NCBI RefSeq assembly: GCF_022808915.1 | Contig: NZ_JAKZFS010000007.1 | Span: 1-64,000 of the forward strand | DNA length: 64,000 nt | Origin: Fundidesulfovibrio terrae | GTDB lineage: Bacteria; Desulfobacterota; Desulfovibrionia; Desulfovibrionales; Desulfovibrionaceae | Direction of reading: 5' to 3' | Shown: piece after piece, positions 430 to 46,682 of the stretch | Position numbering within the stretch: the first letter of the stretch is position 1 | Layout: the number at the start of each line of letters is the position of its first letter | Program-made: the position numbers and the translations under genes | The notes under the pieces: generated by a model | What the model was told of the DNA's origin: nothing | Databases searched by the model: none | What the model saw: only the letters and a program-made list of their open reading frames with translations

Positions 430-480
430 GCCTCCGGCCGCCAAAAGGACCAGTCCCTTTGGAATCCCCTCTCGCTTCGC
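430..480 (-). repeat. Interspersed palindromic repeat, copy A
   Basis: Read on the minus strand this gives GCGAAGCGAGAGGGGATTCC, then CCAAAGGGAC-TG-GTCCTTTTGG (one G:T change in the stem), then CGGCCGGAGGC. It is the same element as at 4138, 10971, 30437, 31064 and 46631. It is the only copy whose GGAGGC end points away from the nearest stop codon (asnS). Confidence 0.8.
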
Positions 481-550
481 CGCGTTCGATGCGGACGAGG
501 CCCCAAGTATCTTCGTACGACAGAAAAGACGCCGGTCAACTCCGCAAACG

Positions 551-589
551 AAAAGAGGCCGGGGACCCCATTCGGGACCACCCGGCCTC
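551..589 (-). terminator. Rho-independent terminator of asnS
   Basis: Minus-strand stem GAGGCCGGG / CCCGGCCTC (589-581 with 563-555), 17-base loop, followed by TTTTCG. It begins 33 bases after the asnS stop codon. Confidence 0.7.
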
Positions 590-621
590 CCATCGCGGCA
601 CACCCCGCGGCCTGCGCGTCG

Positions 622-1998
622 TTAGAATTCCAAATGCTTGTACGTCCTGGGGAAGGCGATGACGTCACGGATGTTGGTCGCCCCGGTGGCCAGCATCACC
701 AGCCGCTCGAAGCCCAAGCCGAACCCTGCATGAGGGGCCGTTCCGAAACGCCTAGTGTCCAGGTACCACTGGTAGCATTCCATATCCAGCCCCATTTCGG
801 CGATGCGGGCCTCCAGGCGGTCCAGACGTTCCTCACGGGCGCTGCCGCCCACGATCTCGCCGATGCGCGGCACCAGCACGTCCATGGCCCCAACGGTCTT
901 GCCGTCCTCGTTCTGGCGCATGTAGAAGGCTTTGATATCCTTGGGGTAGTCGTACACGATGACCGGCTTCTTGAAGTGTTCCTCGGCCAGGTAGCGCTCG
1001 TGCTCGGTCTGGATGTCCTTGCCGAAGGCCGCCTCGTACTCGAACTTCTTGGTGGCCTTGCGCAGGATTTCCACGGCCTCGCCGTACGGGATGCGCTCGA
1101 AGGGCTCGCTCACCAGCTTCTCGAGCGTCCCCATGAGGGACGTGTCCACCCACTTGGCGAAGAGTTCCAGATCGCCCGCGCGACGATCCATAACGTCCGA
1201 GATGCAGTGCTTGAGCAGGTCCTCGGCCAGGTCCATGTTGTCGGTGAGGGTAGCGAAGGCCATCTCGGGCTCCACCATCCAGAACTCGGCGGCGTGGCGC
1301 GCCGTGTCGGACGGCTCGGCCCTGAACGTGGGGCCGAAGGTATACACGTCGCCCAGGGCCAGGGCGAAGGGCTCGGCCGAGAGCTGGCCGGACACCGTCA
1401 GAAAGGCTTCCTTGCCGAAGAAGTCGGCCTTGGCCCCCTCGGCGCCGAGCGGCTGGCCCGGGTGCAGGGTGGTCACGCGCAGCATCTCCCCTGCTCCCTC
1501 GCAGTCCGAGCCGGTGATGACGGGCGAATGCAGGTAGAAGAAGCCCCGGTCCTGGAAATAGCGGTGGATGGACAGGGCCAGCTCGGAGCGTATGCGGAAC
1601 ATGGCCCCGAACTTGTTGGTGCGCGGACGCAGGTGTGCTATGGCCCGCAGGAACTCGTCGGAGTGGCGCTTCTTCTGGAGGGGGAAGGTCTCCTGGGCGG
1701 CCGCGCCGATCATCTCCACGGATGTGGCCTTGATCTCCCAGGCCTGGCCCTTGCCCGGCGAGGCGATGAGCGCGCCGGTCACGGCGACGGAGGCTCCCGT
1801 GCCCATGTCCTTGACGGTTTCGTATCCGGGGATGCCCGCGTCCACCACGGCCTGGATGTTGGCCAGGCAGGAGCCGTCGTTGATCTCCAGGAAGGAGAAA
1901 TCCTTGGCGTCGCGGCGCGTGCGCACCCAGCCCTTGACGACAACCTGCTCCTTGGGGCCGTCGGCCGAGAGCAGGGATGCGATTTTCGTGCGTTTCAT
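622..1998 (-). CDS. asnS: Asparagine--tRNA ligase
   Basis: Class II aminoacyl-tRNA synthetase of 458 residues that charges tRNA-Asn with asparagine in the cytoplasm. The N-terminal OB-fold anticodon-binding domain (about residues 1-105, VKGWVRTRRDAKDFSFLEIN) is followed by the catalytic core with motif 1 (RYFQDRGFFYLHSPVITGSD), motif 2 (FRAEPSDTARHAAEFWMVEP) and motif 3 (GFGLGFERLVML) near the C-terminus. The length is normal for the family. The frame stays open far upstream through the antisense of ftsY, but homology begins at MKRTKIASLL, so the start at 1998 is chosen. It is divergent from ftsY with a 108-base spacer. A gene for direct asparaginylation suggests that tRNA-dependent amidation is not the only Asn route. 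Confidence 0.97.
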   Translation of the reverse strand: MKRTKIASLLSADGPKEQVVVKGWVRTRRDAKDFSFLEINDGSCLANIQAVVDAGIPGYETVKDMGTGASVAVTGALIASPGKGQAWEIKATSVEMIGAAAQETFPLQKKRHSDEFLRAIAHLRPRTNKFGAMFRIRSELALSIHRYFQDRGFFYLHSPVITGSDCEGAGEMLRVTTLHPGQPLGAEGAKADFFGKEAFLTVSGQLSAEPFALALGDVYTFGPTFRAEPSDTARHAAEFWMVEPEMAFATLTDNMDLAEDLLKHCISDVMDRRAGDLELFAKWVDTSLMGTLEKLVSEPFERIPYGEAVEILRKATKKFEYEAAFGKDIQTEHERYLAEEHFKKPVIVYDYPKDIKAFYMRQNEDGKTVGAMDVLVPRIGEIVGGSAREERLDRLEARIAEMGLDMECYQWYLDTRRFGTAPHAGFGLGFERLVMLATGATNIRDVIAFPRTYKHLEF

Positions 1999-2106
1999 GC
2001 ACAGGCAGATAACGCAGGGGCCGTTCGGGGGGCAAGCCTTGTCTCCAGGGCGACTGTAGGTTAGGAAGCCTCCGGCGGCGTTCTCCATACCATATAAGGA
2101 ACATCC

Positions 2107-3516
2107 ATGGGATTTTTCTCCAAACTGACTTCCTGGCTGGGCGGCAAGAAACCGGAAGAGACTCCCGAAGCGCAAGCTCCTGAAACTCCGGAGGTTCCGG
2201 CCGAAGGCGTCGCCGAGGCTCAGGAGGCCGCACCGGTCGCAGCCCCTGCAGCCGAGACCGCGCCCGAAGCTCCCGCCGGGGCCGAGGCGCCTGCCTGCCC
2301 TGCCCCCAATCTCGTCAGCGAAAACTGGCAGAAGGAACTCACCCTCACCCTGCGTGAGGCCGAGCCCAAGCTCTCTGTCTGGCTCGGCATCCTGCTGCAG
2401 GGCGTGGACAAGCCCGGCCCCGAGCTGTGGCAGCGTCTGAGTTTCCTTTTCCAGTGCCTGGAGGCCCCAGCCGCCGAAGCCGAGGAGTTCGTCTCCTCCT
2501 TCGAGAAGTGGCTGGCCAACATGGGCTACGAGGAGGTCGAGGAGTTCCGCTCCGAGCTGCAATACCGCCTGGCCCTGGCCCTGGACCTGGAGGACGAGGA
2601 GGACGAGCGTTCGCGCCTGTTCGTGAAGCTCTCCGAGGGTCTGGCCAAGACCCGCGAGCAGATCGCGGCCCGCATCGACGGCCTGCTCACCTCCCATGCC
2701 AAGATGGACGACGACTTCTGGGACGAACTGGAGGAAATCCTCATCATGGCCGACGTGGGCTTCGAGCCCGCCGGGAAGCTCCTCTCCCAGCTCAAGAACC
2801 GCGCCCGCAAGGCCGGGGTCAGCGAGCCCGCCGGGTTCAAGGACATCCTGCGCGAGGAGCTGGCCTACATCTTCCGCGCCCCCAAAACCATCAAGGCGGT
2901 CAACCCGCCCGAGGTGGTGATGATGGTCGGCGTCAACGGCGTGGGCAAGACCACCACCATCGCCAAGCTGGCGTACCGCGCCCAAATGCAGGGCCGCAAG
3001 GTGCTCATCGCCGCGGGCGACACCTTCCGCGCCGCCGCCATCGAGCAGCTCCAGATCTGGGCCAAGCGCGTGGGCGCGGGGTTCTTCTCCAAGGGCGAAG
3101 GGGCCGACCCGGCCGCAGTGGCCTTCGAGGCCATGGAGCGCTGCCTGGCCGAGGGCTACGACCTGATGCTGCTGGACACTGCCGGACGACTGCACACCAA
3201 GATCAACCTCATGGAAGAGCTCAAGAAGATCGAGCGCGTGCTCGGCAAGAAGCACCCCGGAGCGCCGCACCGCACCATCCTCGTGGTGGACGCCACCACC
3301 GGCCAGAACGCCCTGTCCCAGACCAAACTCTTCCATGAGGCCGTGGGCGTGGACGAGATCGTGCTCACCAAGCTCGACGGCACCGCCAAGGGCGGCGTGG
3401 TGGTGGGCATCGCCCTGGAGCACGCCATTCCCATCACCTTCGTGGGGCTTGGCGAAAAGATGGAAGACATGCGCCCCTTCTCCGGAGAGGATTTCGCCAA
3501 GGCCCTGCTTGTCTAA
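2107..3516 (+). CDS. ftsY: Signal recognition particle receptor FtsY
   Basis: SRP-receptor GTPase of 469 residues that docks SRP-ribosome complexes at the inner membrane for co-translational insertion. Residues 1 to about 165 form a long acidic, Ala/Pro/Glu-rich A domain typical of proteobacterial FtsY. The N domain (about 170-260) and SRP-type G domain follow: P-loop GVNGVGKTTTIAKLA at about 275, DTFRAAAIEQL, DTAGRLHTK at about 357 and TKLDGTAKGG at about 420. AAGGA lies 7 bases before the ATG. A short HD-domain gene follows after 74 bases in the same direction. Confidence 0.97.
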   Translation: MGFFSKLTSWLGGKKPEETPEAQAPETPEVPAEGVAEAQEAAPVAAPAAETAPEAPAGAEAPACPAPNLVSENWQKELTLTLREAEPKLSVWLGILLQGVDKPGPELWQRLSFLFQCLEAPAAEAEEFVSSFEKWLANMGYEEVEEFRSELQYRLALALDLEDEEDERSRLFVKLSEGLAKTREQIAARIDGLLTSHAKMDDDFWDELEEILIMADVGFEPAGKLLSQLKNRARKAGVSEPAGFKDILREELAYIFRAPKTIKAVNPPEVVMMVGVNGVGKTTTIAKLAYRAQMQGRKVLIAAGDTFRAAAIEQLQIWAKRVGAGFFSKGEGADPAAVAFEAMERCLAEGYDLMLLDTAGRLHTKINLMEELKKIERVLGKKHPGAPHRTILVVDATTGQNALSQTKLFHEAVGVDEIVLTKLDGTAKGGVVVGIALEHAIPITFVGLGEKMEDMRPFSGEDFAKALLV

Positions 3517-3590
3517 ACTCCGCGAATGGGTATCATGTAGGAAGATTGAGGAAACAGGCAGACGGTTTCACCCATAACACCTGATAATTC

Positions 3591-4112
3591 ATGCATATAC
3601 CCGACAGAACCACATCCATCGAGATACTCGAAAAGCACCAGGGCGATTCGCCCGAACGCATAGCCCACTCCATGGCCGTGGCCGAACTGGCCATGGCCCT
3701 GGGGCGCGAACTGGTCGCCCAAGGCCATTCGCTTGATTTGGGCCTCATCGAGGCCGCCGCCATCCTGCACGACATCCTCAAGGGCCAGCCCGCCCACGAC
3801 CACGCAGGCGGCGAGATGCTGCGATCCATGGGATACGCGCAGGTGGCCGCAGTGGTGGAGGTGCACACCCGCCTGGGAGGACGCACCCCCGCTCCCGAGG
3901 AGCCCATCTCCGAGGCCGAGGTGGTCTACATGGCCGACAAGAGCTACCGCCGCGTGAACCGCGTCACCATCGAGGAGCGTTACGGCATCTGGCGCAACAC
4001 CTGGAAGGACAACCCGACGCGCCTGGAGAGCCTGACTCGCGGCGAGAACCGGGCCAAGACCGTGCGCGAGAGGATCGAAAAGGCGATGGGGAAGACGTTG
4101 GGAGATATTTAA
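3591..4112 (+). CDS. HD-domain phosphohydrolase
   Basis: Protein of 173 residues with an HD metal-dependent phosphohydrolase fold: an early His (AHSMAVAELA, about 26), the HD pair in AAILHDILKG (about 60), HAGGEMLR and a later Asp in YMADKSYRR. Such small HD proteins hydrolyse phosphomonoesters or nucleotides in the cytoplasm; the substrate cannot be read from sequence. No signal peptide or membrane segment is present. It follows ftsY by 74 bases and may share its transcript. A copy of the interspersed repeat begins 26 bases after its stop. Confidence 0.8.
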   Translation: MHIPDRTTSIEILEKHQGDSPERIAHSMAVAELAMALGRELVAQGHSLDLGLIEAAAILHDILKGQPAHDHAGGEMLRSMGYAQVAAVVEVHTRLGGRTPAPEEPISEAEVVYMADKSYRRVNRVTIEERYGIWRNTWKDNPTRLESLTRGENRAKTVRERIEKAMGKTLGDI

Positions 4113-4137
4113 AGCCAAGAAAGAGAGAAGAGTAAGA

Positions 4138-4224
4138 GCCTCCTTAGGCCTTAGGGACCAGTCCCCTTGGAATACCCTTTAGCTTCGCGTGATGCACCGG
4201 AATGACCGGTGCATCACGCGAAGC
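4138..4224 (-). repeat. Interspersed palindromic repeat, copy B, with long hairpin arm
   Basis: A diverged repeat core (GCCTCC at 4138 to about 4175) is followed by a perfect 19-bp inverted repeat: GCTTCGCGTGATGCACCGG (4182-4200), loop AATGA, CCGGTGCATCACGCGAAGC (4206-4224). The outer CTTCGCG/CGCGAAG bases are shared with copy D while the inner stem differs. There is no T-run, so it is not a standard terminator. It lies between the HD gene and recQ. Confidence 0.8.
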
Positions 4225-4303
4225 ATCTTGGAGGGCCAGTGAAATCATCCCTCTGCCGGATCCCAGCGGCCCCCGGCCATAATCACTTCATCAGCGAGCC
4301 CCC

Positions 4304-10585: not shown

Positions 10586-10906
10586 ATGAGCGATCTGCTG
10601 AAAAAGGGATTCTACACGGGACTGGGCGCGGGCCTTTTGCTCAAGGACGAAATATTGAACGCCCTGAACCCTCCGGTGAAGGTGGACGACCAGCCCGTCG
10701 AGGAAATCCGCGAACAGCTGCGTACCGTTCTCGGCAAGCTCGCTGGCAACATGGGCCAGGGCGTGGACGCCCTCAAGGATGCCGGGGAAGCGGAGCTGGC
10801 CGGGCTGCTGGAACGCTTCGGCCTGGCCAAGGCCGAGGACGTGGAGGCGCTGAAGGCCCGCATTGCGGACCTTGAGGCCAAGCTCAAGTCCGGGAAGAAG
10901 AAATAA
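10586..10906 (+). CDS. Phasin-like / PHA-granule-type small coiled-coil protein
   Basis: Protein of 106 residues, all helical, with a hydrophobic Gly-rich N-terminus (KGFYTGLGAGLLLKDEI) and a C-terminal coiled coil (VEALKARIADLEAKLKS) ending in lysines. This pattern matches the poly(3-hydroxyalkanoate)-system / phasin-like family often found beside ubiB. No PHA synthase is in the window, so a role in storage granules is unproven. The ribosome site AAGGAG precedes the ATG and a terminator follows immediately. Confidence 0.65.
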   Translation: MSDLLKKGFYTGLGAGLLLKDEILNALNPPVKVDDQPVEEIREQLRTVLGKLAGNMGQGVDALKDAGEAELAGLLERFGLAKAEDVEALKARIADLEAKLKSGKKK

Positions 10907-10915
10907 ATTAAAACA

Positions 10916-10950
10916 GGCCGGAAGCGCGGCTTTGCGCGCTTCCGGCCCCA
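10916..10950 (+). terminator. Rho-independent-type terminator after the phasin-like gene
   Basis: Perfect 13-bp stem GGCCGGAAGCGCG / CGCGCTTCCGGCC with loop GCTTTG, followed by an A/T-rich tail (ATAATTTTCT). It lies 9 bases after the stop codon. Confidence 0.75.
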
Positions 10951-10970
10951 ATAATTTTCTCATCGATCGA

Positions 10971-11022
10971 CGCGAAGCGATAGGGGATTCCAAAGGGACT
11001 GGTCCCTTTGGCCGCCGGAGGC
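10971..11022 (+). repeat. Interspersed palindromic repeat, copy C
   Basis: CGCGAAGCGATAGGGGATTC, then a perfect CCAAAGGGAC-TG-GTCCCTTTGG stem, then CCGCCGGAGGC. It sits between convergent genes, 8 bases beyond the stop codon of the minus-strand gene at 11031. Confidence 0.85.
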
Positions 11023-11030
11023 TCCTACTC

Positions 11031-11366
11031 TTAAATATGCTGCTTCAGCAGGTCGTACGGCGTATCTTCCGGCAGTTTGATGCGGTTGTCGGGCAGGAAC
11101 GTCGAGGCCAGCGCCCCCAGCCATTCCCGGCTCACTTTCAAGCTCTCGAAGGCCAGCACCGCCCTGCCCTCTTCCTGAAAGAGCCTGTAGCCCACGATCT
11201 CCACCTGCACGGGGGCGGCCTCGCCCCTGGGCAACGCCTCCACGGTCATGACCTTGGCCGAGGAGTTCACGGTGAGCTTGAACGAGTGGCAATAGCTGTC
11301 CACCAGCGGGGCCAGCTTGCTGGTGATGGCCGACGACACGGCCATGTCCTTGAGTGCTCCGAACAT
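11031..11366 (-). CDS. Conserved hypothetical protein downstream of purF
   Basis: Protein of 111 residues that I do not recognise. It has no signal peptide, membrane helix or catalytic motif; the predicted pattern is an N-terminal helix (LKDMAVSSAITSKLAPLVDSY) followed by alternating strands and a short helical end. It starts 4 bases after the purF stop, so it is very probably translated from the carB-purF transcript. An accessory role in nucleotide synthesis would be guesswork. Confidence 0.7.
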   Translation of the reverse strand: MFGALKDMAVSSAITSKLAPLVDSYCHSFKLTVNSSAKVMTVEALPRGEAAPVQVEIVGYRLFQEEGRAVLAFESLKVSREWLGALASTFLPDNRIKLPEDTPYDLLKQHI

Positions 11367-28531: not shown

Positions 28532-30349
28532 ATGCTGCGTTCGTTGTCCATCTCCACCCGCATATACCTGTCGCTCCTTGGCCTTGCGTTCTTCCTGATA
28601 GCCACGGTAGGCGGATTCCTCTTCGGTGCGGACAGGATCCGCGATCTCATCCTCACAGAGGTCGGCGTGATGATGCTCGACGCCCAGAAAGCCAAAATCG
28701 AAGTGGCCACGCGGGGGGCGGCCGAAACCTTCGGACAGCTCTTGCAGTCCGTCCCCAAGGAGCAGCAGCTCGACTTCCTGCGCAAGGCCATCTCGACGTT
28801 CCGCTACGAAGAGGACAAATCCGGGTATCTCTTCATCAACGAAGGCAACACCATCCGGGTTCACCCGGTCAACGCGGCACTCCAGGGGAAGGACATGTCC
28901 GACGTCAAGGACAGGAACAACGTCTACTTCACCAACGAGATGCAGCAGAAAGCCAAGCAAGGCGGTGGATTCGTCGAATATACCTTCCCCAAGCCCGGCA
29001 AAGGAGACCAGCCCAAGCTGTCGTTCGCAACAACCATCCCGGACACTCCTTATTGGGTCGGAACAGGCGTGTACATCGACAACATCGACGCGGAAAAGGC
29101 CCGCATCGGGGATGTCATAACGAGTGTGATCCGAAAGAACACGACCACTGTTCTCGTCTGCGTCTGCCTCGCGATCCTGTTATTGGTTCTGCCATCCACC
29201 TATTTCGTCGTGCGCAGCATCACCCGGCCCATCGCGCTGGCCACCGACGCGGCGCAACAGGTGGCCGAGGGCAACTACGACATCCGCGTCGACGAGGCCG
29301 GGCGGGATGAAGCTTCCAAGCTCGCCCGGGCGCTGAACTCCATGTCAGGCACCCTGCGCGAAAGCATTGAAAAGATCACCGCTAAAACCCGGGAAGCGGA
29401 ACAGAAGGCCGAGGCAGCCGAACTGGCCTCGCGCGAAGCCGAGGCGGCCAAGTGCCAGGCCGAGCAGGCCAAGAGCGAAGGCATGCTGCAGGCTGCCGGC
29501 CGCCTCGAGTCCATCGTGGGTGTGCTGGGCGCGGCCTCGGACCAGCTCACGGAACAGATCGAGAACTCGAACAGGGGAGCCCACTCCCAGGCGGACCGCA
29601 TAGCGGAAACGGCCACGGCCATGGATGAGATGACCGCCACGGTCCTGGAGGTGGCCAAGAACGCGGCCATGGCCGCCGAGACGTCCGATTCGGCCCGGAC
29701 CCAGGCGGAATCGGGGTCGCAAGTTGTCAGCGACGTGCTGGCGGGCATGAGACAGGTTCAGGCCCAGTCGGACCAGCTCAAGCAGGACATGCGCCAACTG
29801 GGCAAACAGGCCGAGGACATCGGACGGGTGCTCACTGTCATATCGGACATCGCGGACCAGACCAACCTGCTGGCCCTGAACGCGGCCATCGAAGCCGCCC
29901 GCGCAGGGGACGCGGGGCGCGGCTTCGCCGTGGTGGCCGACGAGGTGAGAAAGCTCGCCGAAAAGACCATGACCGCCACCCGCGAAGTGGGCGACGCCAT
30001 CACCTCCATCCAGCAAAGCGCCAGGCGAAACGTGGAGAACGTGGAACGCTCCGTGGCCCTCATCGGCGACGCGGCCGGGCTCGCGGGAAAATCAGGCCAG
30101 GCGCTCAGTGAAATCGTCGGGCTGGTTGGATCGACCTCGGATCAGGTGCGCTCCATAGCCACCGCCTCCGAAGAACAGTCAGCCGCCAGCGAGGAGATCA
30201 GCCGCTCCATCGAGCAGGTGAACGCCATCTCCGCCGACACGTCGCGCATCATGAACGAAGCGGCCACGGCAGTGGCCGAACTGGCGGGACAGGCCCACAA
30301 GCTCCAGGAACTCATCCAGGACCTACAGCACGAAGCCGGTGGGACGTAG
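28532..30349 (+). CDS. Methyl-accepting chemotaxis protein, sCache type
   Basis: Chemoreceptor of 605 residues. TM1 (about 10-30) is followed by a periplasmic single-Cache domain (about 35-190; [39 protein letters not shown]), TM2 (about 207-230), HAMP (to about 283), a coiled coil and a signalling tip ([18 protein letters not shown], about 444). CGGAGG precedes the ATG. The sensor is closely similar to that of the receptor at 62435, so the two are paralogues; sCache receptors often bind small carboxylates. The C-terminus has no CheR-docking pentapeptide. Confidence 0.93.
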
Positions 30350-30359: not shown

Positions 30360-30411
30360 CTGGGGCTCCGCCCCAGACCCCGGCAGGGCTCCGCCCTGCA
30401 CCCGCCAGGGG
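30360..30411. repeat. GC-rich dyad repeat, second type
   Basis: Two hairpins in a row: TGGGGC-TCC-GCCCCA and GGCAGGGC-TCC-GCCCTG, ending CACCCGCCAGGG. The layout is that of a common dispersed intergenic repeat of GC-rich proteobacteria (from memory; only one copy is in this window). It lies 10 bases after the chemoreceptor stop and next to copy D of the other repeat family. Confidence 0.55.
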
Positions 30412-30436: not shown

Positions 30437-30523
30437 AGCTTCGCGAGCTTTACCGGCATGCCGGTAAAGCTCGCGAAGCTATTGGTGATTCCAAAGGGAC
30501 TTGTCCCTTTGGCCGCCGGAGGC
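30437..30523 (+). repeat. Interspersed palindromic repeat, copy D, with 44-bp perfect palindrome
   Basis: Positions 30437-30480 are a perfect 44-bp palindrome: AGCTTCGCGAGCTTTACCG, centre GCATGC, then the exact reverse complement. The core GATTCCAAAGGGACTTGTCC...GGAGGC follows (30487-30523) with a perfect 10-bp stem. It is the most complete copy in the window. Confidence 0.85.
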
Positions 30524-30615: not shown

Positions 30616-30882
30616 CTAGGCGCCGATCTTGTTGACGGCCAGATTCAGCCGGGAGACCTTGCGAGCGGCGGTCTTCCAGTGAATGATCTTCTTGGAGGCG
30701 GCGCTGTCGAGGACGGCGGTGGCTTCCTTCAGAGCGGCGGTGGCAGCGGCGGCGTCCTTCTGGTCGATGGCGGCGCGCACGGCCTTGATGACGTTCTTCA
30801 CCTGGGTCTTAGCGGAACGGTTGCGGGCGCGGGCAACGAGGCTCTGACGGTGCCTTTTCAGCGCGGACTTATGATTGGCCAA
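30616..30882 (-). CDS. rpsT: 30S ribosomal protein S20
   Basis: Basic helical protein of 88 residues that binds 16S r[23 protein letters not shown] and the C-terminal [14 protein letters not shown] are diagnostic. The start codon is TTG (30882), with GGAGG 8 bases upstream. E. coli rpsT also starts with UUG, where the weak start is part of autoregulation, so the same control may apply here. It is a single gene with its own promoter and terminator. Confidence 0.97.
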
Positions 30883-31063: not shown

Positions 31064-31103
31064 GGGATTCCAAAGGGACTTTGTCCCGTTGGCCGCCGGA
31101 GGC
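31064..31103 (+). repeat. Interspersed palindromic repeat, copy E
   Basis: GGGATTCCAAAGGGACTTTG then TCCCGTTGGCCGCCGGAGGC, with one stem mismatch and one extra base in the loop. The CGCGAAGC part is missing. GGAGGC ends 26 bases beyond the glyS stop codon. Confidence 0.85.
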
Positions 31104-31129: not shown

Positions 31130-33214
31130 CTACACCTGCAGCGCGGCGAAGTCCGCCAGGCGTCCCAGGCGGTCCACCAGCGATTTCAGCAGATTGAGGC
31201 GGCTCATCTTCAAGGTCTCGTCGTCGCACATCACCATGACGTTGTCGAAGAACGCGTCCACGGCCGGACGCAGTTCGCCAAGCAAACCGAACAGGGCGTC
31301 GAAGTCGTCGGCGGCCCACAGCTCCTCGAAGCGGGAGGCCGTGGCGGCCAGGGTGTCGGCCAAGGCCAATTCGGCAGGCTCAACCAGGGACGCCTTGTCC
31401 ACGGAACCGGTCAGCGTGAGTTCGGCGGCCTGCTTGCGGATGATGTTGGCCGCGCGTTTGAAGGCCAGCACGGCCTGGTCAAAACCCACGCCCTCGCTGA
31501 AACGCACCAGGGCGGCCACGCGGGCGTCCAGAGCCCAGACGTCGGTGAAGCCCGCGCCCATGGCGGCTTCCACCACCTGCGGGCGCACGCCCTTGCCCTG
31601 GTACCAGGCCTTGAGGCGCGATCCGAAGAACTCCACCAGCTTGGTCTTTGCCTCGGCGGGGTTGAGCTTCCAGGCCACACCGGAGTAGCCCGCGAAAGCC
31701 GCGTCCACGAGGGCTTCCAGATTCAGGCGCAGGCCGTGCTCGATGACGGTACGGCAGATGCCCAGCACCTGGCGGCGCAGGGCGTAGGGGTCGGCCGCGC
31801 CGGTGGGGATCATCTCCAGGCCGAAGCATCCAGCCAGGGTGTCGATCTTGTCGGCGACGGACAGGAGCGCTCCGGCCAAGCTCGCGGGCACGGGGCTGTC
31901 GGGGCCGAGCGGCAGGTACTGCTCGGAAATGGCCTGGGCAACCTGCTCGTTCTCGCCCTTCTTGCGGGCGTAGACGCCACCCATGACGCCCTGGAGGTCG
32001 GCGAATTCACCCACCATCTCGGACACCAGATCGGCCTTGGAAAGCCGTCCGGCCTGGCAGAGGTCCAGCATGATGGAGGGGGCGGCCAGTTCGGCCAGCT
32101 TGCCGCACAGGGCCTCGATGCGCCGGGTCTTGCTCCCCATGGACCCGAGCGGAGCCAGGAAGGTGACGTTGTCGAGCTTGTTAAGCCAAGTGTCGAAGCT
32201 GGAGGCCAGATCGGTCTCCCAGAAGAAGCGGGCGTCCTCCAGGCGAGCCTTGAGCACGCGCTCCCAGCCCTTGCGCACCAGGGCCACGTCGGTGGGCTTG
32301 AGCCCTGCCGTGGTCAGGAAGTGCGGCAGCAGGCGGCCCTTGTCGTCCTCCACGCCGAAGCTCTTCTGGTGGCTCTCCATGCTGGTGAGCAGCACCTGCC
32401 TGGGCAGTTCGAGATAGCGCTTGTCGAAATTGCCCAGGATCACCAGCGGGTATTCCACCAGTCCGCAGACTTCCTCCAGCAAGCGCTCGCCGATGATGGC
32501 CCTGCCCCCGGCAGAGGCGGAGGCCTCCTCGCACTGCTTGACGATGGATGCGCGACGGACCTCGGGGTCCAGGGTCACGCAGCCCTTGCTCTCAAGAGTA
32601 GGGAAATAGTCGGCCACAGTGGCCAGTTCCCAGGGGCCGGCCCCCATGACCCGGTGGCCGTAGGTGGCGCGCCCGGAGGCCACGGTGGCCACCTCGAAGG
32701 GGATGACCTCGTTATCCAGCAAGGCCACGATCCAGCGGATGGGGCGGCCGAAGGTGTAGTCGAGGCTGCCCCAGTGCATCTTCTTGGGGAAGTTGAAGGA
32801 CTTGAACACGGCGGCGCAGATGCCGGGCAGGAGCGCGGCGGCCTCGGTCCCGCCTGTGGCCTTGCGCACGGCGAGGTACTGGCCCTTTGGGGTGTCCACG
32901 GTGAACACGTCGGACATCTGCGCGCCCTGGCCCTTGGCGAACCCGAGGGCGGCAGGGGTGGGGTTGCCGGAGGCGTCGTAGGCGGCCTTCACGGGCGGAC
33001 CGGTGACGACCTCTTCCTCGCGGCGCTGCACGGCGTCCAGACCTTCCACCAGCGCGGTCAGGCGGCGCGGGGTGGCCCAGGCCTTGACCTCGACGAATCC
33101 CAGTTTGTTCTGCTCCAGAAGCCCGGCGAGTCCCTGGCGCAGCTCCCCGGTGAGGGAGGCCAGGAAGCGCGAGGGCATTTCCTCGAAGCCGATTTCCAGT
33201 AGAAAGGCGGGCAT
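31130..33214 (-). CDS. glyS: Glycine--tRNA ligase beta subunit
   Basis: Beta chain of the heterotetrameric bacterial glycyl-tRNA synthetase, 694 residues, carrying tRNA recognition. It starts PAFLLEIGFEEMPSRF, the standard beta-chain N-terminus, and has VTGPPVKAAYD, the HD-like ESHQKSFGVED and an anticodon-binding C-terminal region (ADDFDALFGLLGELRPAVDAFFDNVMVM). It begins 12 bases after glyQ. Confidence 0.97.
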   Translation of the reverse strand: MPAFLLEIGFEEMPSRFLASLTGELRQGLAGLLEQNKLGFVEVKAWATPRRLTALVEGLDAVQRREEEVVTGPPVKAAYDASGNPTPAALGFAKGQGAQMSDVFTVDTPKGQYLAVRKATGGTEAAALLPGICAAVFKSFNFPKKMHWGSLDYTFGRPIRWIVALLDNEVIPFEVATVASGRATYGHRVMGAGPWELATVADYFPTLESKGCVTLDPEVRRASIVKQCEEASASAGGRAIIGERLLEEVCGLVEYPLVILGNFDKRYLELPRQVLLTSMESHQKSFGVEDDKGRLLPHFLTTAGLKPTDVALVRKGWERVLKARLEDARFFWETDLASSFDTWLNKLDNVTFLAPLGSMGSKTRRIEALCGKLAELAAPSIMLDLCQAGRLSKADLVSEMVGEFADLQGVMGGVYARKKGENEQVAQAISEQYLPLGPDSPVPASLAGALLSVADKIDTLAGCFGLEMIPTGAADPYALRRQVLGICRTVIEHGLRLNLEALVDAAFAGYSGVAWKLNPAEAKTKLVEFFGSRLKAWYQGKGVRPQVVEAAMGAGFTDVWALDARVAALVRFSEGVGFDQAVLAFKRAANIIRKQAAELTLTGSVDKASLVEPAELALADTLAATASRFEELWAADDFDALFGLLGELRPAVDAFFDNVMVMCDDETLKMSRLNLLKSLVDRLGRLADFAALQV

Positions 33215-41455: not shown

Positions 41456-41472
41456 GGGCCTAACGTGGAAAA

Positions 41473-41499: not shown

Positions 41500-41524
41500 G
41501 TCGGGTTCGGGTTGCGCACCGGTT

Positions 41525-42216: not shown

Positions 42217-42447
42217 ATGGGACAGTACTTTCCCGAGAATGATCGATTCCCATTGGAAGAACAGGTCAAGACCCTAGCCGACGACGAACTGCTCGACTTC
42301 TGGGAGGAAGCCCAATTCCTCGACCGCCCGTTCGCCGAAGAATCGGCCCCCGTGCCGGTGAACCAACTCGAGTACGAGCGCATCATCCTGCAGGAGCTCA
42401 TGCTGCGATCCTGTATCCGCGGCGCGGGCACCGAAGGCATCCGGTAG
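42217..42447 (+). CDS. Small hypothetical protein
   Basis: Acidic protein of 76 residues, not recognised. The start at 42217 (MGQYFPENDR) is preferred over an upstream ATG because the 25 added codons are Arg/Trp/Cys-rich and read like non-coding DNA. The sequence is helical (LEEQVKTLADDELLDFWEEA; LEYERIILQELMLRSCI). GGAGG lies 13 bases before the start, a little far. A good terminator follows, which supports a real transcript. Confidence 0.6.
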   Translation: MGQYFPENDRFPLEEQVKTLADDELLDFWEEAQFLDRPFAEESAPVPVNQLEYERIILQELMLRSCIRGAGTEGIR

Positions 42448-42481
42448 CCCCGCGCGTTTCGCGACGCCACGCACATTTTTC

Positions 42482-42506
42482 AAGCCCGGCCCAGGCCGGG
42501 CTTTTT
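42482..42506 (+). terminator. Rho-independent terminator
   Basis: Stem AAGCCCGGCC / GGCCGGGCTT with a 2-base loop, then TTTTTCTTT, 34 bases after the small gene ending at 42447. Confidence 0.8.
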
Positions 42507-42651
42507 CTTTCCATTCGGCTGCGAAGCCCCCTTGCTCGGCCCGGCCCTTCTCACCGACACCTCGCCCACCGATCGCCGACCACGCCCCCTTCCAGAATAC
42601 CCTCCTTGGGATTGACTCGCGAGCGCCGAGGGATTACCCAAGAAACACATT

Positions 42652-42670
42652 GAGAATGACTTTCATTTTT
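42652..42670 (+). promoter_or_regulatory. Fur-family box upstream of the metal ATPase
   Basis: GAGAATGACTTTCATTTTT matches 13 of 19 positions of the classical Fur box GATAATGATAATCATTATC and contains the inverted repeat AATGA-CTT-TCATT. It lies 73 bases before the ATPase start, downstream of a TTGACT at 42612. It could be bound by Fur, Zur or PerR. Confidence 0.45.
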
Positions 42671-42743
42671 ATCGAAACACCAGACAGAATTCCCCCGGCT
42701 GCTGACACTGCCGGGGGACCTGGCCGGCCATCAGGAAGTACGC

Positions 42744-44963
42744 ATGAATGCACCGGACAAGATGACGTTCTCGGTACCTGAAATGGATTGCATGGAGGAG
42801 GCCGCGCTCCTCAAGAGGGCGCTCGCCCCGCTGGTGCAGGATGAGGACCGCCTGGACTTCGACTTCATCGGGCGGCGCATGACCGTGAACCTGGACGGGT
42901 TGGACGTGTCCCGGGAGCGCATCCTGGCGGCCGTGGCCTCCACGGGTCTTGCCGCATCGGAACAGTCCGGGACCGGCGGCGGGATGCTCGACGGCTGCTC
43001 CTGTTGCGGCGGGTCGTGCTCCACCGGGAGCCAGAAGCAAAGCTACCTCCGCCGCAACCGGCGGGCCATCGCCTGCGCGGCCAGCGGAACGGCCTGGATC
43101 GCCGGGCTTGTCACCGCCGCCGTCGCCGGAGGATCGTTCCTGGCCGCCTTCCGCGAAGGCGCGAACGCTCCGGCCGCCTCCATGGCCTTCTGGTTGTTCG
43201 CGGCCCTGGCGGGCATGTGGCACGTGCTGCCCCGCGCCTGGGCGTCACTCAAAACTCTCCGCCCGGACATGAACCTGCTCATGGTGGCGGCGGCGGTAGG
43301 GGCCATGGCCCTTGGCGACTACTCCGAGGGCGCGTCCGTGGCCTTCCTCTTCGCCCTGGCCAACGAGCTGGAATCCTGGAGCATGGGCCGGGCGCGCCGG
43401 GCCATCCAGTCCCTGGCGGACATCACGCCGGCCACGGCCCTGGTGCTCGAGCCGCTCATGCTCACCCCGGTTCAGAAGCGAGTTGAGGAGGTGGCCGTGG
43501 GCGCGACGGTGCTGGTGCGCCCGGGCGACAAGGTCCCGCTGGACGGCGTTGTGCGCAAGGGGGCCTCGGCCGTGGACCAGTCGCCCATCACCGGCGAATC
43601 CATGCCCGTGCCCAAGGGGCCGGGCGACGCGGTCTACGCCGGCACCATCAACGCCGAGGGAGCCCTGGAGGTCGAGACCACCAGGCCCGCCTCGGACACC
43701 ACCCTCGCCCGCATCATGCACATGGTGGAGGCCGCCCAGTCCCGCCGGGCCAAGGCCGTGCAATGGGTGGACAGATTCGCCGTGGTCTACACCCCGGCCA
43801 TGATCGGCTTGTCGCTTCTGGTGGCCGTGATCCCCCCGCTCCTTTTCGGTGGCGCGTGGGCCCAGTGGTTCTACCAAGCCCTGGTGGTGCTGGTGATCTC
43901 CTGCCCGTGCGCCCTGGTGATCTCCACGCCCGTGAGCGTGGTGGCCGCCCTGGCCTCGGCCGCGCGCAACGGCGTGCTGGTCAAGGGCGGGGCCTACCTG
44001 GAAGCGCCCGCCTCCGTGACCGCCGTGGCCCTGGACAAGACCGGCACCCTGACACTCGGCCGGCCCTCGGTCACGGCCATGGAGGCGTTCGGGAAGGTCT
44101 CCGCGCGGGAGCTCCTGGCTGCGGCGGCGGCCCTGGAATCCCGCAGCAGCCACCCCCTGGCCGGGGCCGTGCTGGCCCACGCCCGGCGCGAGAGCGTCGA
44201 ACCTCCCGTGGTGGAGGACGCCCGGGCCATACCGGGCCTGGGCGCGCAAGGGCTCATCGGCGGGGTGCTCCACTTCGTGGGCAACGCGCGGCTCCTGCGC
44301 GAGCAGTCGCCCGCCCTCCTCACGCCGGAGTTGGCCGGGCGCTTCGAAAAATGCGCCGGCGAGGCGGCGGCCGCAGTGGCGGTCTGGAACGAGTCGGGCG
44401 TACTCGGCATCCTCACGATCGAGGACAAGGTGCGCCCGGAAGCCCCGGCCGCAGTGGCCGAACTGCTGAAACTGGGAGTCGAGCGCGTCGTGATGCTCAC
44501 CGGCGACAACGAAGCGGCGGCCCAAACCATGGCGCGCCGCACCGGCGTCACCGGCTACGAGGCGGACCTCTTGCCCCAGGACAAGACCCGCATCGTGTCC
44601 GAGATGGCGGAAGGCGGCGTCAAGGTGGCCATGGTGGGCGACGGCGTCAACGACGCCCCTGCCCTGGCGGCATCGAACCTGGGCGTGGCCATGGGCTCCA
44701 TCGGCACCGGCGTGGCCATCGAGACCGCCGACGTGGCCCTCATGTCCGACGATCTGTCCAAGCTGCCCTGGCTGATCCGCCACTCGCGCCGCACGCTTGG
44801 CACCATCAAGTGCAACATCGGCTTCGCGCTGGGGCTCAAGGCGCTCTTCCTGGCGATGGCATTTCTGCAGCTGGCCACCCTCTGGATGGCCATCCTGGCC
44901 GACATGGGGGCGTCGCTCATCGTGATCTTCAACGGACTGCGCCTGCTGCGCATCCGCAAATGA
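42744..44963 (+). CDS. P1B-type heavy-metal transporting ATPase (Zn/Cd/Pb type)
   Basis: Metal efflux ATPase of 739 residues. An N-terminal HMA-like domain has a single-Cys MDCMEEA site and is followed by a Cys cluster (CSCCGGSC, about 75-82). The core has TGES, the membrane metal site CPCALVISTP (about 388), phosphorylation site DKTGT (about 431), SSHPLAGA, and GDGVNDAP (about 632). CPC in TM6 with DMG in the last TM (LADMGASLIV) points to the Zn2+/Cd2+/Pb2+ class (P1B-2) rather than copper. A Fur-like box lies upstream. No metallochaperone or regulator gene is adjacent. Confidence 0.92.
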   Translation: MNAPDKMTFSVPEMDCMEEAALLKRALAPLVQDEDRLDFDFIGRRMTVNLDGLDVSRERILAAVASTGLAASEQSGTGGGMLDGCSCCGGSCSTGSQKQSYLRRNRRAIACAASGTAWIAGLVTAAVAGGSFLAAFREGANAPAASMAFWLFAALAGMWHVLPRAWASLKTLRPDMNLLMVAAAVGAMALGDYSEGASVAFLFALANELESWSMGRARRAIQSLADITPATALVLEPLMLTPVQKRVEEVAVGATVLVRPGDKVPLDGVVRKGASAVDQSPITGESMPVPKGPGDAVYAGTINAEGALEVETTRPASDTTLARIMHMVEAAQSRRAKAVQWVDRFAVVYTPAMIGLSLLVAVIPPLLFGGAWAQWFYQALVVLVISCPCALVISTPVSVVAALASAARNGVLVKGGAYLEAPASVTAVALDKTGTLTLGRPSVTAMEAFGKVSARELLAAAAALESRSSHPLAGAVLAHARRESVEPPVVEDARAIPGLGAQGLIGGVLHFVGNARLLREQSPALLTPELAGRFEKCAGEAAAAVAVWNESGVLGILTIEDKVRPEAPAAVAELLKLGVERVVMLTGDNEAAAQTMARRTGVTGYEADLLPQDKTRIVSEMAEGGVKVAMVGDGVNDAPALAASNLGVAMGSIGTGVAIETADVALMSDDLSKLPWLIRHSRRTLGTIKCNIGFALGLKALFLAMAFLQLATLWMAILADMGASLIVIFNGLRLLRIRK

Positions 44964-44994
44964 AGCCGGATTGGCCTTCTGGAATGAACCAGCC

Positions 44995-45348
44995 CTAAAC
45001 AGCGTTTCGCGAGTTCTTGTCAGAGTCGCGCAACACTTCGCCGATCAAGGCGCTGAATTCATCGTGTTCGCCGGTTCGGCAGAATTGCGAATCCACCCGT
45101 CTCCCGGATGAATCCCGCGCATGATGGGGAATTGTCGACAACAGATGCTCCACGAACACATCTTCAGCAACAGGACCCCGAGCGTACGCAGGGCCATTCC
45201 CTGCCCCACGGCCTGGGCGCTCGTCCAGATAGCGGATCAAGCGGCCCTCCTTCATCAACCTTTTCGCCAGTTCGGGATCATCTTCGAGAAGCCACTCGAG
45301 TGCCAAATCCCACCAAAATGTTTTCCCTTTGCTGTTGACATAATACAT
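44995..45348 (-). CDS. Hypothetical protein
   Basis: Protein of 117 residues with no recognised family. It begins MYYVNSKGKTFWWDLALEWL, with aromatic-rich first 20 residues, then a charged helical and Gly/Arg linker region. GGAGCATCC places a good ribosome site before the ATG. It is convergent with the ATPase gene (31-base gap) and borders a stretch of lower GC, so it may be recently acquired. Confidence 0.55.
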   Translation of the reverse strand: MYYVNSKGKTFWWDLALEWLLEDDPELAKRLMKEGRLIRYLDERPGRGAGNGPAYARGPVAEDVFVEHLLSTIPHHARDSSGRRVDSQFCRTGEHDEFSALIGEVLRDSDKNSRNAV

Positions 45349-45833
45349 GGATGCTCCTTTGTTCAGGAGTGGTGCCCCCGGGCCGTGTCAACGGACAGGA
45401 CCTTCCCGGGAACGGCGATTCACTGCCAAGGAACCATCGCCTCAAAACGATAAACTATAACAAGCACATCCAAAGCATATGCGATCCATCCAGACTGGCC
45501 CCCTAAAAAATGGGACTGAGTTCCTCGATTGTATAACACACAAATCACCCGCGACCATCCGTTTCGGCAAGAAATGCGGGACTCCCTCTCAGGAAGATCC
45601 GGCCTTCAAGAGCCACGGGCTGCGCATTCCCCGGATAAACTTTCAAAATATAAGTACATTCAACCAGGGTAATTTTGCGGGAAATTGGAATGCGGAAAAG
45701 CCGGCCCCGCGCCCCAAGCGGGAGCACAGCCCGGGAGGCGAAGCTTTCTGGATATGAAAGGGGGGAGGATGAACCAGACGCCCAGCGAGGCTGGGCGGGA
45801 ACGCTCGCGCCCGGCCCCGCTGAGCCCTGCCGG
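45349..45833. other. Gene-free, A/T-richer intergenic stretch
   Basis: About 485 bases with visibly lower GC around 45440-45690 (AAACGATAAACTATAACAAG; AAAATATAAGTACATTC). No frame has both a ribosome site and coding character. ACTGGCCCCCTAAAAAATGG near 45495 is vaguely like an IS3-family end, but there is no partner end or transposase. It may be a decayed insertion. Confidence 0.4.
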
Positions 45834-46427
45834 TCAGCCGGGCAAGCGGCAGACCAGCACCCCGGACCCAATGGGCACGATGACGCTATCCACCCGCGAG
45901 TCCTGGGGAATCATGGCCAGAAAATCCTCGATCTGATGTTTGTGGCTGATGACGTTGTCCGCGCAGATGATCCCGCCCGGGACCATGCGGGTGAGGAGCA
46001 ACTCGTAGCAGGGCGCAAGGATCGAGCGCTCGGCGTCCAGGAAGGCGAAAGCCACGCCACGGCGCTTCTCCAGTTCTTCCAGAGCGTCGCCCTGGACGAG
46101 CTCCACCTGTGACTCTATCCCGGCCAGGCGCAGGGTCTCGCGGGCCAGGGCGGCCTTCTTCTCCGACAGCTCATAGGTGGTGAGCCCGCGCCCTTTGGCC
46201 TTGCAGGCCAGGGACAGCCACATGGCCGAGTAGCCCGCCCCCGACCCCACCTCCACCCAGTCCCCCTCCGGGGTCGATGCGGCCAGGATGGCCAGAAACT
46301 TGCCCGTATCCGGGGGGATCTGGCGCAGGCGGTCTGCGTGGGGGGTGCCATCGGTGCGATCCTCGGCGTCGCGTGCTTCCAGCACGCGCATTCTTTCGAG
46401 CATGGCTGGCGAGAGGTCGTGGAACAT
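45834..46427 (-). CDS. SAM-dependent O-methyltransferase-like protein
   Basis: Class I methyltransferase of 197 residues. The SAM site is WVEVGSGAGYSAMWLSLA (about 57-74), followed by TTYELSEKKAALA, VELVQGDALEEL, AFLDAERSILAPCYELLL and a product-side GGIICADNVISHKHQIEDF, as in the caffeoyl-CoA/catechol O-methyltransferase family. The substrate is unknown. ATG 46427 has AAGGAG 8 bases upstream and is preferred over an N-terminal extension. Confidence 0.82.
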   Translation of the reverse strand: MFHDLSPAMLERMRVLEARDAEDRTDGTPHADRLRQIPPDTGKFLAILAASTPEGDWVEVGSGAGYSAMWLSLACKAKGRGLTTYELSEKKAALARETLRLAGIESQVELVQGDALEELEKRRGVAFAFLDAERSILAPCYELLLTRMVPGGIICADNVISHKHQIEDFLAMIPQDSRVDSVIVPIGSGVLVCRLPG

Positions 46428-46529
46428 GCCGGCTCCTTGCGAAAGGGCGGGAAACGGTTCGAAGAAGCCCCTTTTCCCGCGTGCGGCGGCTTCTTCCGGG
46501 CGTCCCTTCGCGTACAACTCCTGCGGGAA

Positions 46530-46564
46530 AATGAAAAGCCGGGAAGGCTTTCGCCCTCCCGGCC
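46530..46564 (-). terminator. Terminator downstream of icd
   Basis: Minus-strand stem GCCGGGAGGGC / GCCTTCCCGGC (one A:C mismatch), loop GAAA, then TTTTCATTTTCC. Between it and icd lies repeat copy F, so the repeat is inside the icd 3' untranslated region. Confidence 0.7.
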
Positions 46565-46630
46565 TGTTTCGATCGGCAATTTGCCCGGTCCTAACGGATA
46601 CGCCTCCTCATGCCCGGCGGGCAGATCCCT

Positions 46631-46682
46631 GCGAAGCGAAGCGGGATTCCAATGGGACGAAGTCCCTTTGGCCGCCGGAGGC
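46631..46682 (+). repeat. Interspersed palindromic repeat, copy F
   Basis: GCGAAGCGAAGCGGGATTCC, then AATGGGACGAAGTCCCTTTGG, then CCGCCGGAGGC. One stem mismatch (T for A). GGAGGC ends 23 bases beyond the icd stop. Confidence 0.85.

What the first reader, a model, noticed from the sequence alone, without database searches (positions are those of the whole stretch)
430..46682. Six-copy family of intergenic palindromic repeats with a fixed orientation to stop codons
Copies at 430-480, 4138-4224, 10971-11022, 30437-30523, 31064-31103 and 46631-46682 share CGCGAAGC, GGGATTCC, a CCAAAGGGAC/GTCCCTTTGG hairpin and CCGCCGGAGGC. All are between genes. In copies B, C, E and F the GGAGGC end lies 8-26 bases beyond a stop codon and the element reads the same way relative to that gene; D is in the same orientation at 92 bases. 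That is not expected of random insertion. The lack of T-runs argues against ordinary terminators; candidates are an mRNA 3'-end stabiliser, a gyrase/IHF-type site, or a REP-like element moved by a RAYT transposase elsewhere.
Basis: partly seen in the sequence, partly recalled or inferred. Interest (0 to 1): 0.75.

Follow-up and report, generated by a model that had tools for sequence, protein, structure and literature searches.

The report
Mirror-tailed hairpin repeats between genes
The six repeats belong to a high-copy family of short hairpins scattered between genes in a sulfate-reducing bacterium and in members of other phyla, and a tail beside each hairpin mirrors its stem as if the DNA could fold into a triple strand.

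Summary
The repeats are real. The window's genome holds 182 copies of the 21-nt core (<=3 mismatches; reversed control 0). The unit is an 11-nt leader GCCTCCGGCGG, a hairpin whose stem varies with compensatory changes, then a short tail. New observation: the tail is the mirror image of the stem's 3' arm. Swapping tails between stems destroys the fit (z 8.6 to 10.9). In 17 long hairpins ordinary antiparallel re-pairing is not above chance. Read on the strand opposite the leader, the tail fits the purine-motif triplex code, so the best reading is a dispersed DNA repeat kept able to form an intrastrand triplex. Closest known kinds: BoxC/PIT/TM_ECO elements and REPs. 'Fixed orientation' holds only partly: gene 3' flanks are strongly favoured (convergent:divergent 128:14), but in tandem spaces sense:antisense is 32:15 here and 69:58 elsewhere. 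No RAYT gene was found in 7 genomes of the genus. Element-bearing gene ends do not lack ordinary terminators. Leader-bearing copies occupy 9 of 30 orthologous sites. The family also occurs in Clostridia, Brevibacillus and Novosphingobium. Triplex formation, function and mover are inferred, not shown.

The parts
430..468 (+). Copy A: leader 430-440, hairpin 441-462, tail AATCCC 463-468, followed by CGCTTCGC
4138..4224 (+). Copy B (degenerate leader and stem) plus a second long hairpin GCTTCGCG...CGCGAAGC at 4182-4224; 25 nt after the stop of the HD-domain gene 3591-4112
10971..11022 (-). Copy C: leader 11022-11012, hairpin 11011-10990, tail AATCCC(CTAT) 10989-10980, CGCTTCGCG 10979-10971; 8 nt after the stop of gene 11031-11366 (-)
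30437..30523 (-). Copy D: leader and hairpin 30523-30491, then a second, 42-nt perfect inverted repeat GCTTCGCG...CGCGAAGC at 30438-30479; 92 nt after the stop of the ribosomal protein S20 gene 30616-30882 (-)
30360..30403 (+). Leaderless modules beside D, obeying the same tail rule: CTGGGGCTCCGCCCCAG+ACCCC (30360-30381) and GCAGGGCTCCGCCCTGC+ACCC (30383-30403); just after the stop of the MCP gene 28532-30349
31064..31103 (-). Copy E: leader 31103-31093, hairpin 31092-31070, tail AATCCC 31069-31064; 26 nt after the stop of the glycyl-tRNA synthetase beta gene 31130-33214 (-)
46631..46682 (-). Copy F: leader 46682-46672, hairpin 46671-46649, tail AATCCC 46648-46643; 23 nt after the stop of the isocitrate/isopropylmalate dehydrogenase-family gene 46706-47854 (-), before a T-run terminator

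Best explanation
A dispersed, non-coding DNA repeat family whose unit is leader GCCTCCGGCGG + hairpin + mirror-image tail. SHOWN: high copy number; compensatory stem variation; a tail that mirrors the stem's 3' arm position by position across many different stems; a hairpin-plus-tail module that differs between fixed flanks at one orthologous site; presence/absence at orthologous sites; accumulation in gene 3' flanks; presence in other phyla. INFERRED: the constraint is an intrastrand DNA triplex. On the strand opposite the leader the order is third strand (complement of the tail) - short linker - purine arm - loop - pyrimidine arm, which is a class I purine-motif triplex by the definition in Holder et al. 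2015. The third strand reads G over G-C pairs and A or T over A-T pairs and nearly lacks C, so it could form at neutral pH in single-stranded or negatively supercoiled DNA. INFERRED: the repeat spreads as a non-autonomous element (or by recombination between copies) and survives mostly where insertion is harmless, after stop codons and between convergent genes; no benefit to the neighbouring gene is needed.
For: Copy number: 182 vs 0 in control. Tail rule: fixed-register mirror 4.35 of 7 vs 3.11 +/- 0.14 with swapped tails, 0 of 2000 swaps as good, 40 nonredundant stems. Triplex code over bp4-8 of 56 lower stems: 87.2% of positions fit the purine-motif code vs 58.9% swapped (z 10.9); the pyrimidine-motif code fits 79.6% vs 56.6% (z 9.8). 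At bp4, A-T pairs take tail A in 14 of 15 (T.A-T, a purine-motif triplet only); at bp5 they take T in 19 of 23. 17 long hairpins: parallel complement z 6.2 (0 of 3000), direct copy z 0.8 (651 of 3000). Control, same mirror score >=4/6: 54 of 63 distinct perfect family hairpins in the own-genome data vs 10 of 146 non-family ones. Strand: in loci whose anchors did not fix the stem, sense A.C mismatches (G.T wobbles on the other strand) outnumber sense G.T 17:5 (p 0.017), and where the arms disagree the tail follows the 3' arm 22, the 5' arm 3, neither 4. Module difference between fixed flanks at the orthologous B site of G003 and G006. Presence/absence: leader-bearing elements at 9 of 30 orthologous sites. 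3' flanks: convergent:divergent 43:4 own, 128:14 pooled with each element counted once.
Against: The commonest subfamily (AAAGGG/AATCCC) offers only about 5-6 triplets, a short triplex; its stability was not measured. At bp3 the tail is A whatever the pair (G-C: A in 12 of 16), which I take as linker, and the rule fades above bp8 (A-T at bp9-10 fits in 5 of 18; G-C in 17 of 26). At C-G pairs the tail letter is nearly random (C in 46 of 150). A pyrimidine-motif third strand on the leader strand fits almost as well (z 9.8). The related E. coli motif folds as a triplex in vitro, but in vivo DMS probing did not show it (PMC4666352). Stems are related by descent, so the 40-56 representatives are not fully independent. 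The 17:5 wobble asymmetry is modest and some of those loci were hand-picked from a listing; over all loci the tail follows the 3' arm 42 and the 5' arm 13 times. No mobilising enzyme was identified and target-site duplications were not searched for systematically. Absence at orthologous sites is partly a matter of definition: at C, G003 and G006 lack the leader but have chains of leaderless modules after the same stop.
Confidence: 0.55

Rival explanations
1. RNA-level 3'-UTR element: the transcript forms the hairpin and the tail folds into its major groove as a pyrimidine-motif RNA triple helix (class III), protecting mRNA 3' ends.
For: 78 of 99 own copies follow a same-strand gene, median 26 nt after its stop; tandem sense:antisense 32:15. 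The leader strand has purine arm - pyrimidine arm - pyrimidine tail, and the pyrimidine-motif code fits well above swaps (z 9.8). Pyrimidine-motif intrastrand triplexes can form in RNA (PMC4666352, introduction passage).
Against: Orientation is near even in tandem spaces of other genomes (69:58, p 0.37). Runs of C+.G-C need protonation (recalled; the paper also says the class III form is more stable in acid). Tail A over A-T at bp4 is not a pyrimidine-motif triplet. Sense A.C outnumbers sense G.T, the reverse of RNA tolerance. Element F is absent after its gene in all 6 congeners.
Confidence: 0.15
2. A REP/REPIN-type miniature element moved by a RAYT or another Y1 transposase.
For: High copy, intergenic, hairpin with a conserved tag at one end, tail-to-tail inverted pairs in G034 (7 '+-' and 0 '-+' within 400 nt in the listing; counted), cross-phylum spread, presence/absence at orthologous sites.
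Against: PF01797 absent in 7 of 7 genus genomes; present in 2 of 11 genomes with more than 20 pattern copies but in 29 of 48 others (phylogenetically confounded). The tag is neither GTAG nor CGTC (tags from PMC3733652). The tail rule is not among the REP features in the abstract and passages that I read.
Confidence: 0.12
3. Intrinsic transcription terminator, or an attenuator in which tail and 3' arm compete for the 5' arm.
For: Position after stop codons; the hairpin folds in silico.
Against: No T-run at the hairpin foot. Element-bearing ends have T-run terminators as often as others (convergent 19/56 vs 4/20; tandem 8/43 vs 10/56). In F the element sits between the stop and a T-run terminator. 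Antiparallel re-pairing is not above chance in long stems (z 0.8), though it is in the short ones (z 5.7).
Confidence: 0.06
4. The mirror relation is only shared ancestry of a few low-complexity G-run subfamilies (for example G-quadruplex-prone G-runs), without pairing.
For: Many tails are C-runs opposite G-runs; the direct-copy score is also raised in short stems (z 5.7).
Against: Mixed stems such as AGAGAGGG, GGAGAGGG, AGGGAGGAAAC..TTTTTG and GGGGGAAACCTCTTG carry matching mixed tails; restricting to 35 mixed cores keeps z 8.6.
Confidence: 0.12

Closest known systems
BoxC / PIT element / TM_ECO intrastrand triplex motif (Holder et al. 2015, PMC4666352)
   Same: Intergenic, dispersed, G/C-rich purine/pyrimidine repeat of three blocks (two mirror-related, one their complement); similar in size to one module; occurs in inverted pairs; variable between strains.
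   Different: TM_ECO is class II (pyrimidine block first on the purine-rich strand, 9-nt blocks, highly identical copies). Here the order is reversed (class I / class III), blocks are mostly shorter, stems vary with the tail co-varying, and there is a conserved 11-nt leader. TM_ECO is reported more often upstream of ORFs; this family is in 3' flanks. Desulfovibrio, Solidesulfovibrio, Oscillibacter and Novosphingobium are not mentioned in that paper's main text.
REP / REPIN / BIME repeats (GTAG- and CGTC-tagged; Di Nocera et al. 2013, PMC3733652)
   Same: Short palindrome with a tag at one end, high copy, several phyla, inverted pairs, mostly between convergent and unidirectional genes; CGTC REPs apparently also lack a dedicated transposase.
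   Different: Tag is GCCTCCGGCGG; no resident RAYT found in the genus; carries a mirror tail that tracks the stem. Desulfovibrio and GCCTCC do not occur in that paper's main text.
H-DNA mirror repeats (general knowledge and the introduction passages of PMC4666352)
   Same: Purine/pyrimidine mirror repeat that could form a triplex under negative supercoiling.
   Different: Here the mirror repeat is only about 4-20 nt per half and is joined to its own complement in a hairpin, so the triplex could form within one strand.

Membership tests
REP/RAYT (REPIN) elements | High-copy intergenic palindromes | tested here: met
   182 copies, 0 in control; 1 of 99 own copies in a called gene, 11 of 360 over all sets
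REP/RAYT (REPIN) elements | GTAG or CGTC tag at the hairpin foot | tested here: not met
   Conserved foot is GCCTCCGGCGG
REP/RAYT (REPIN) elements | Resident RAYT / Y1 transposase gene | tested here: not met
   PF01797 in 0 of 7 genus genomes; 31 of 59 genomes positive in the same search
REP/RAYT (REPIN) elements | Inverted pairs | tested here: inconclusive
   G034 listing: 7 '+-', 0 '-+', 9 '++', 1 '--' within 400 nt. In the own-genome sample only 3 close pairs, one each of '--', '-+', '+-'; the congener stretches (7 '+-', 6 '-+', 1 '++') were partly chosen for pairs
Intrastrand triplex motif (PIT/TM) | Third block mirror-related to the purine (or pyrimidine) arm, following a triplex code | tested here: met
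Intrastrand triplex motif (PIT/TM) | ITxF search definition: three blocks of 6-15 nt, loops 1-6 nt | tested here: inconclusive
   Long-stem subfamilies fit by eye; the AAAGGG/AATCCC majority reaches about 5-6 triplets. ITxF itself was not run
Intrastrand triplex motif (PIT/TM) | Folds as a triplex in vitro (CD, NMR) | not testable with these tools
   needs oligonucleotides
TM_ECO/BoxC specifically | Class II order, pattern CCCTCNCCC..GGGNGAGGG..GGGNGAGGG | tested here: not met
   Block order is the reverse (R-Y-Y on the leader strand; RH-R-Y on the other)
Intrinsic terminator | Hairpin directly followed by a T-run | tested here: not met
   The first six tail letters are A/C-rich with no T-run; terminator rate of element-bearing ends is no lower
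Rfam RNA families | Match to a covariance model | tested here: not met
   Window at gathering threshold: 3 tRNAs only; copy C region at E<=1: one hit, 15.8 bits vs 80 needed

The most novel reading that the evidence does not exclude
A cross-phylum family of mobile, protein-free DNA elements whose recognised form is a single-stranded hairpin with a Hoogsteen-paired third strand. An unidentified widespread enzyme or host pathway reads the leader GCCTCCGGCGG plus the triplex, and base-triplet co-variation across dozens of stem sequences is the evolutionary trace of natural intrastrand triplex DNA forming in living cells.
Probability: 0.28. Interest if true: 0.88.

Novelty: new variant of a known kind. 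Interest (0 to 1): 0.68.

Why it matters
Whether intrastrand triplexes form in cells is an open question: the E. coli motif folds in vitro but gave no in vivo footprint (PMC4666352). A family with many different stems, each with a matching tail, provides comparative evidence for triplet pairing of the kind that established base pairing in RNAs, and it gives ready-made variant series for experiments. The same leader in sulfate reducers, Clostridia, Brevibacillus and Novosphingobium suggests either a mover that crosses phyla or a host factor common to them.

Tried and rejected
Terminator: rejected. Antiparallel switch (tail displacing the 3' arm): raised in short, low-complexity stems (z 5.7) but gone in long stems (z 0.8). 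RAYT. Pyrimidine-motif triplex on the leader strand: fits less well than the purine motif on the other strand, but not excluded. A neat code for C-G pairs (always C) seemed to hold in long hairpins but fails overall (C in 46 of 150), so it is not claimed. 'du < dd' in convergent spaces (36 of 46) looked like orientation evidence, but the element is long on its 3' side, so it is not used. First gene models were wrong (antisense training) and were replaced; 7 of 8 called genes given to Pfam had a hit, and the ORF antisense to one of them had none. Wobble counts over all loci (34 vs 10) are biased, because two search patterns fixed AAAGGG; only the subsets are used. A first form of the hairpin control (score >=5/6: 3 of 146 non-family hairpins) was unfair, since only 10 of 63 family hairpins reach it; the threshold >=4/6 is reported instead. 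A script scan for leaderless modules missed known copies C and E, so its negatives count for nothing; the chains at C in G003 and G006 were seen by eye. Rfam: nothing. Phage records: no match to copy C. Rows dropped: 50 of 242 parsed elements failed the clean filter and three spurious stem cores were dropped before the 40-stem test; 12 of 346 elements dropped. Orientation sets were samples: about 99 of at least 182 copies in the own genome; 45, 36, 11 and 176 elements elsewhere, with overlapping genomes; counted once each, 360 in all. Of 32 distinct elements in distant genomes, 20 had mirror score >=4/6; several of the rest carry AAACC-type tails.
Full report
Observation. The six reported copies are in the sequence at the stated coordinates. 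Oriented by the leader, each reads GCCTCCGGCGG, then a hairpin (CCAAAGGGAC..GTCCCTTTGG in C), then AATCCC or nearly so, then in most GCTTCGC. B is degenerate. The window is bases 1-64000 of contig 7 of a 3.90-Mb assembly; that genome has 87 + 95 places matching GCCTCCGGCGGCCAAAGGGAC with up to 3 mismatches, against 0 for the reversed pattern. Rfam has no family for it.

Placement. I built a gene caller because none was on hand. Its first version was mistrained; the second gives the expected codon-position composition, and 7 of 8 called genes given to Pfam had a hit, including a class II tRNA synthetase on the minus strand at 622-2088, while the overlapping plus-strand ORF had none. Of 99 own-genome copies, 46 lie between convergent genes, 32 sense and 15 antisense in tandem spaces, 4 between divergent genes, 1 in a called gene, 1 without an upstream gene. 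A second pass with a stricter filter gave 43, 32, 15, 4 and 1 of 95. In the other sets tandem sense:antisense is 16:15 (congeners, 45 elements), 6:5 (G034, 36), 1:3 (G021, 11) and 46:35 (named genomes, 176), and convergent:divergent is 11:0, 20:0, 4:2 and 52:8. Some named genomes are the same as congeners or G034; with each element counted once, convergent:divergent is 128:14 (p 3e-24), tandem spaces outside the own genome are 69:58 (p 0.37), and 11 of 360 lie in a called gene. So the robust property is a gene-3'-flank preference; a fixed orientation to the stop codon is a modest bias of this genome.

Not a terminator. A T-run terminator lies between stop and element in 5 of 78 sense cases and within 160 nt after the hairpin in 19 of 78. 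Element-bearing gene ends carry T-run terminators as often as other ends: convergent 19 of 56 vs 4 of 20, tandem 8 of 43 vs 10 of 56. At F the element lies between the stop codon and a T-run terminator; three congeners (G001, G004, G005) have a terminator of similar sequence after that stop and no element.

Presence and absence. I looked at the orthologous positions of B, C, D, E and F in six congeners. A leader-bearing element is at the same place and orientation for B in G002, G003 and G006; C in G002 and G005; D in G001, G004 and G005 (in G005 with an insertion of about 80 nt in the loop); E in G005; F in none: 9 of 30. At C, G003 and G006 instead have chains of leaderless modules ending in a GCTTCGCG block after the same stop, and a leader-bearing element reading from the other side of the same intergenic space, so 11 of 30 hold some module in that place; I saw none by eye at the other 19 in the stretches read. 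At B, G003 and G006 share the purine-rich flank, leader and downstream GCTTCGCATTCCAGCG, but hairpin and tail between them are different, so hairpin plus tail behaves as one exchangeable module.

Stem variation. Among 208 distinct hairpins the stem positions 1-12 are 89-100% Watson-Crick, with several pair types at most positions: the hairpin is conserved as a structure while its sequence changes. Subfamilies include AAAGGG, AAGGGG, AGGGG, GGGGG, AGAGGG, AGAGAGGG and GGAGAGGG arms, and long arms with an A/T apex.

The mirror tail. Each stem subfamily carries its own tail: CCAAAGGG with AATCCC, CCAAGGGG with AACCCC, CCAGGGG with ACCCC, CCAGAGGG with ACTCCC, CCAGAGAGGG with ACTCTCCC, CTGGAGAGGG with ACCTCTCCC. 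The tail equals the 3' arm read backwards, which is the parallel complement of the 5' arm. With 40 nonredundant stems the fixed-register mirror match is 4.35 of 7 against 3.11 +/- 0.14 when tails are swapped (0 of 2000 swaps), and 35 mixed-composition stems give the same z of 8.6. Short purine tracts are often their own mirror, so a direct copy of the 3' arm also scores there (z 5.7), but in 17 long hairpins the parallel complement gives z 6.2 and the direct copy only 0.8. As a control, 54 of 63 distinct perfect family hairpins in the own-genome data reach a mirror score of 4 of 6 against 10 of 146 non-family hairpins, one of which is a leaderless module. Mirror relations are not produced by templated copying (general knowledge), so I infer a pairing constraint.

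Which triplex. By the definitions in Holder et al. 2015 (PMC4666352; seen: abstract, sections 14-18, part 1 of section 20, and passages of the introduction), purine arm - pyrimidine arm - Hoogsteen block is class III, and reverse-Hoogsteen block - purine arm - pyrimidine arm, as on our opposite strand, is class I. The purine motif uses GGC and A(T)AT triplets. Over bp4-8 of 56 nonredundant lower stems the purine-motif code fits 87.2% of positions (swapped 58.9%, z 10.9) and the pyrimidine code 79.6% (z 9.8). A-T pairs at bp4 take tail A in 14 of 15 and at bp5 tail T in 19 of 23; G-C pairs at bp4-8 take C in 152 of 172; at bp3 the tail is A whatever the pair, and above bp8 the rule fades. The tail is nearly G-free over its first six positions, so the third strand nearly lacks C, as a neutral-pH triplex needs. 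In loci whose anchors did not fix the stem, where the two arms disagree the tail follows the 3' arm 22, the 5' arm 3 and neither 4 times, and sense A.C mismatches outnumber G.T 17:5. Both point to the leader-opposite strand as the one that folds, since sense A.C is a G.T wobble there. This last point is modest evidence.

Distribution. In 59 genomes, GCCTCCGGCGGCCARRGRG occurs in 19, all in the window's family: all 7 genomes of the genus, and 12 others, some with only 1-3 copies. GCCTCCGGCGGCC counts: Oscillibacter MAG 240, D16-76 22, Selenomonadaceae MAG 31, Aminicenantes MAG 324, UBA2562 66, Desulfovibrio sp. DV 308, Solidesulfovibrio aerotolerans 305, F. agrisoli 127 (reversed control 0-3 per genome). 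D16-76 is unclassified in the NCBI taxonomy but has Spo0A 4 kb from an element on the same contig, so that copy is in an endospore-lineage Bacillota genome. Complete plasmids of Novosphingobium (3 records matched, 2 read) and Brevibacillus ruminantium carry it. MAG assignments may be contaminated; D16-76 and the plasmids do not depend on binning.

Mover. PF01797 is absent in all 7 genus genomes and present in 31 of 59 searched. Among the 11 genomes with more than 20 pattern copies 2 have it, against 29 of 48 others. So a resident Y1/RAYT is not the mover here. Recombination between copies could explain module exchange; what makes new insertions is unknown.

Literature. Searches for the leader letters, intrastrand triplex repeats, Desulfovibrio repeats and terminators and Fundidesulfovibrio repeats listed no paper that, by title and start of abstract, describes this family; apart from two papers I saw listings only, and most subscription papers are not in the library. 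The closest are TM_ECO/BoxC/PIT (PMC4666352) and tagged REPs (PMC3733652; abstract and passages seen). It is therefore best called a new variant: a REP-like dispersed repeat with a class I/III intrastrand triplex architecture and its own leader.

Status of claims. Shown by computation: copy number, placement, stem co-variation, mirror tail, module difference between fixed flanks, presence/absence, cross-phylum presence. Inferred: triplex pairing, the strand, DNA rather than RNA, mobility. Not known: mover, benefit to the host.

Noticed in passing
window 30360-30403 (+): A chain of leaderless hairpin-plus-tail modules after the stop of an MCP gene, facing copy D across a 42-nt perfect inverted repeat; units of about 165 nt resembling this whole region recur in the own genome and in G005.
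   Followed up: partly
window 2068-2079 (+): An exact GCCTCCGGCGGC without a hairpin, near the start of the minus-strand gene 622-2088.
   Followed up: no
L354 1921-2048 (G005, D site): A family element whose hairpin loop holds an insertion of about 80 nt while both arms and the tail are kept.
   Followed up: no
L133 630-760 and L136 (C site in G003 and G006): Chains of three to four leaderless hairpin modules, each followed by ACCC, ending in a GCTTCGCG block, directly after the stop of the gene that carries copy C in the window.
   Followed up: partly
   Followed up: no
window 10900-10960 and similar places downstream of at least 7 own copies: A recurrent T-run terminator with an RAGCGCGC..GCGCGCTT-like stem lies about 70-81 nt beyond the hairpin, as if part of a longer unit of about 125 nt.
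   Followed up: partly
L388 1440-1540: In a 9.5-kb Brevibacillus plasmid three hairpin modules lie in a row, two leaderless and one with the leader; at least the last two have matching tails.
   Followed up: no
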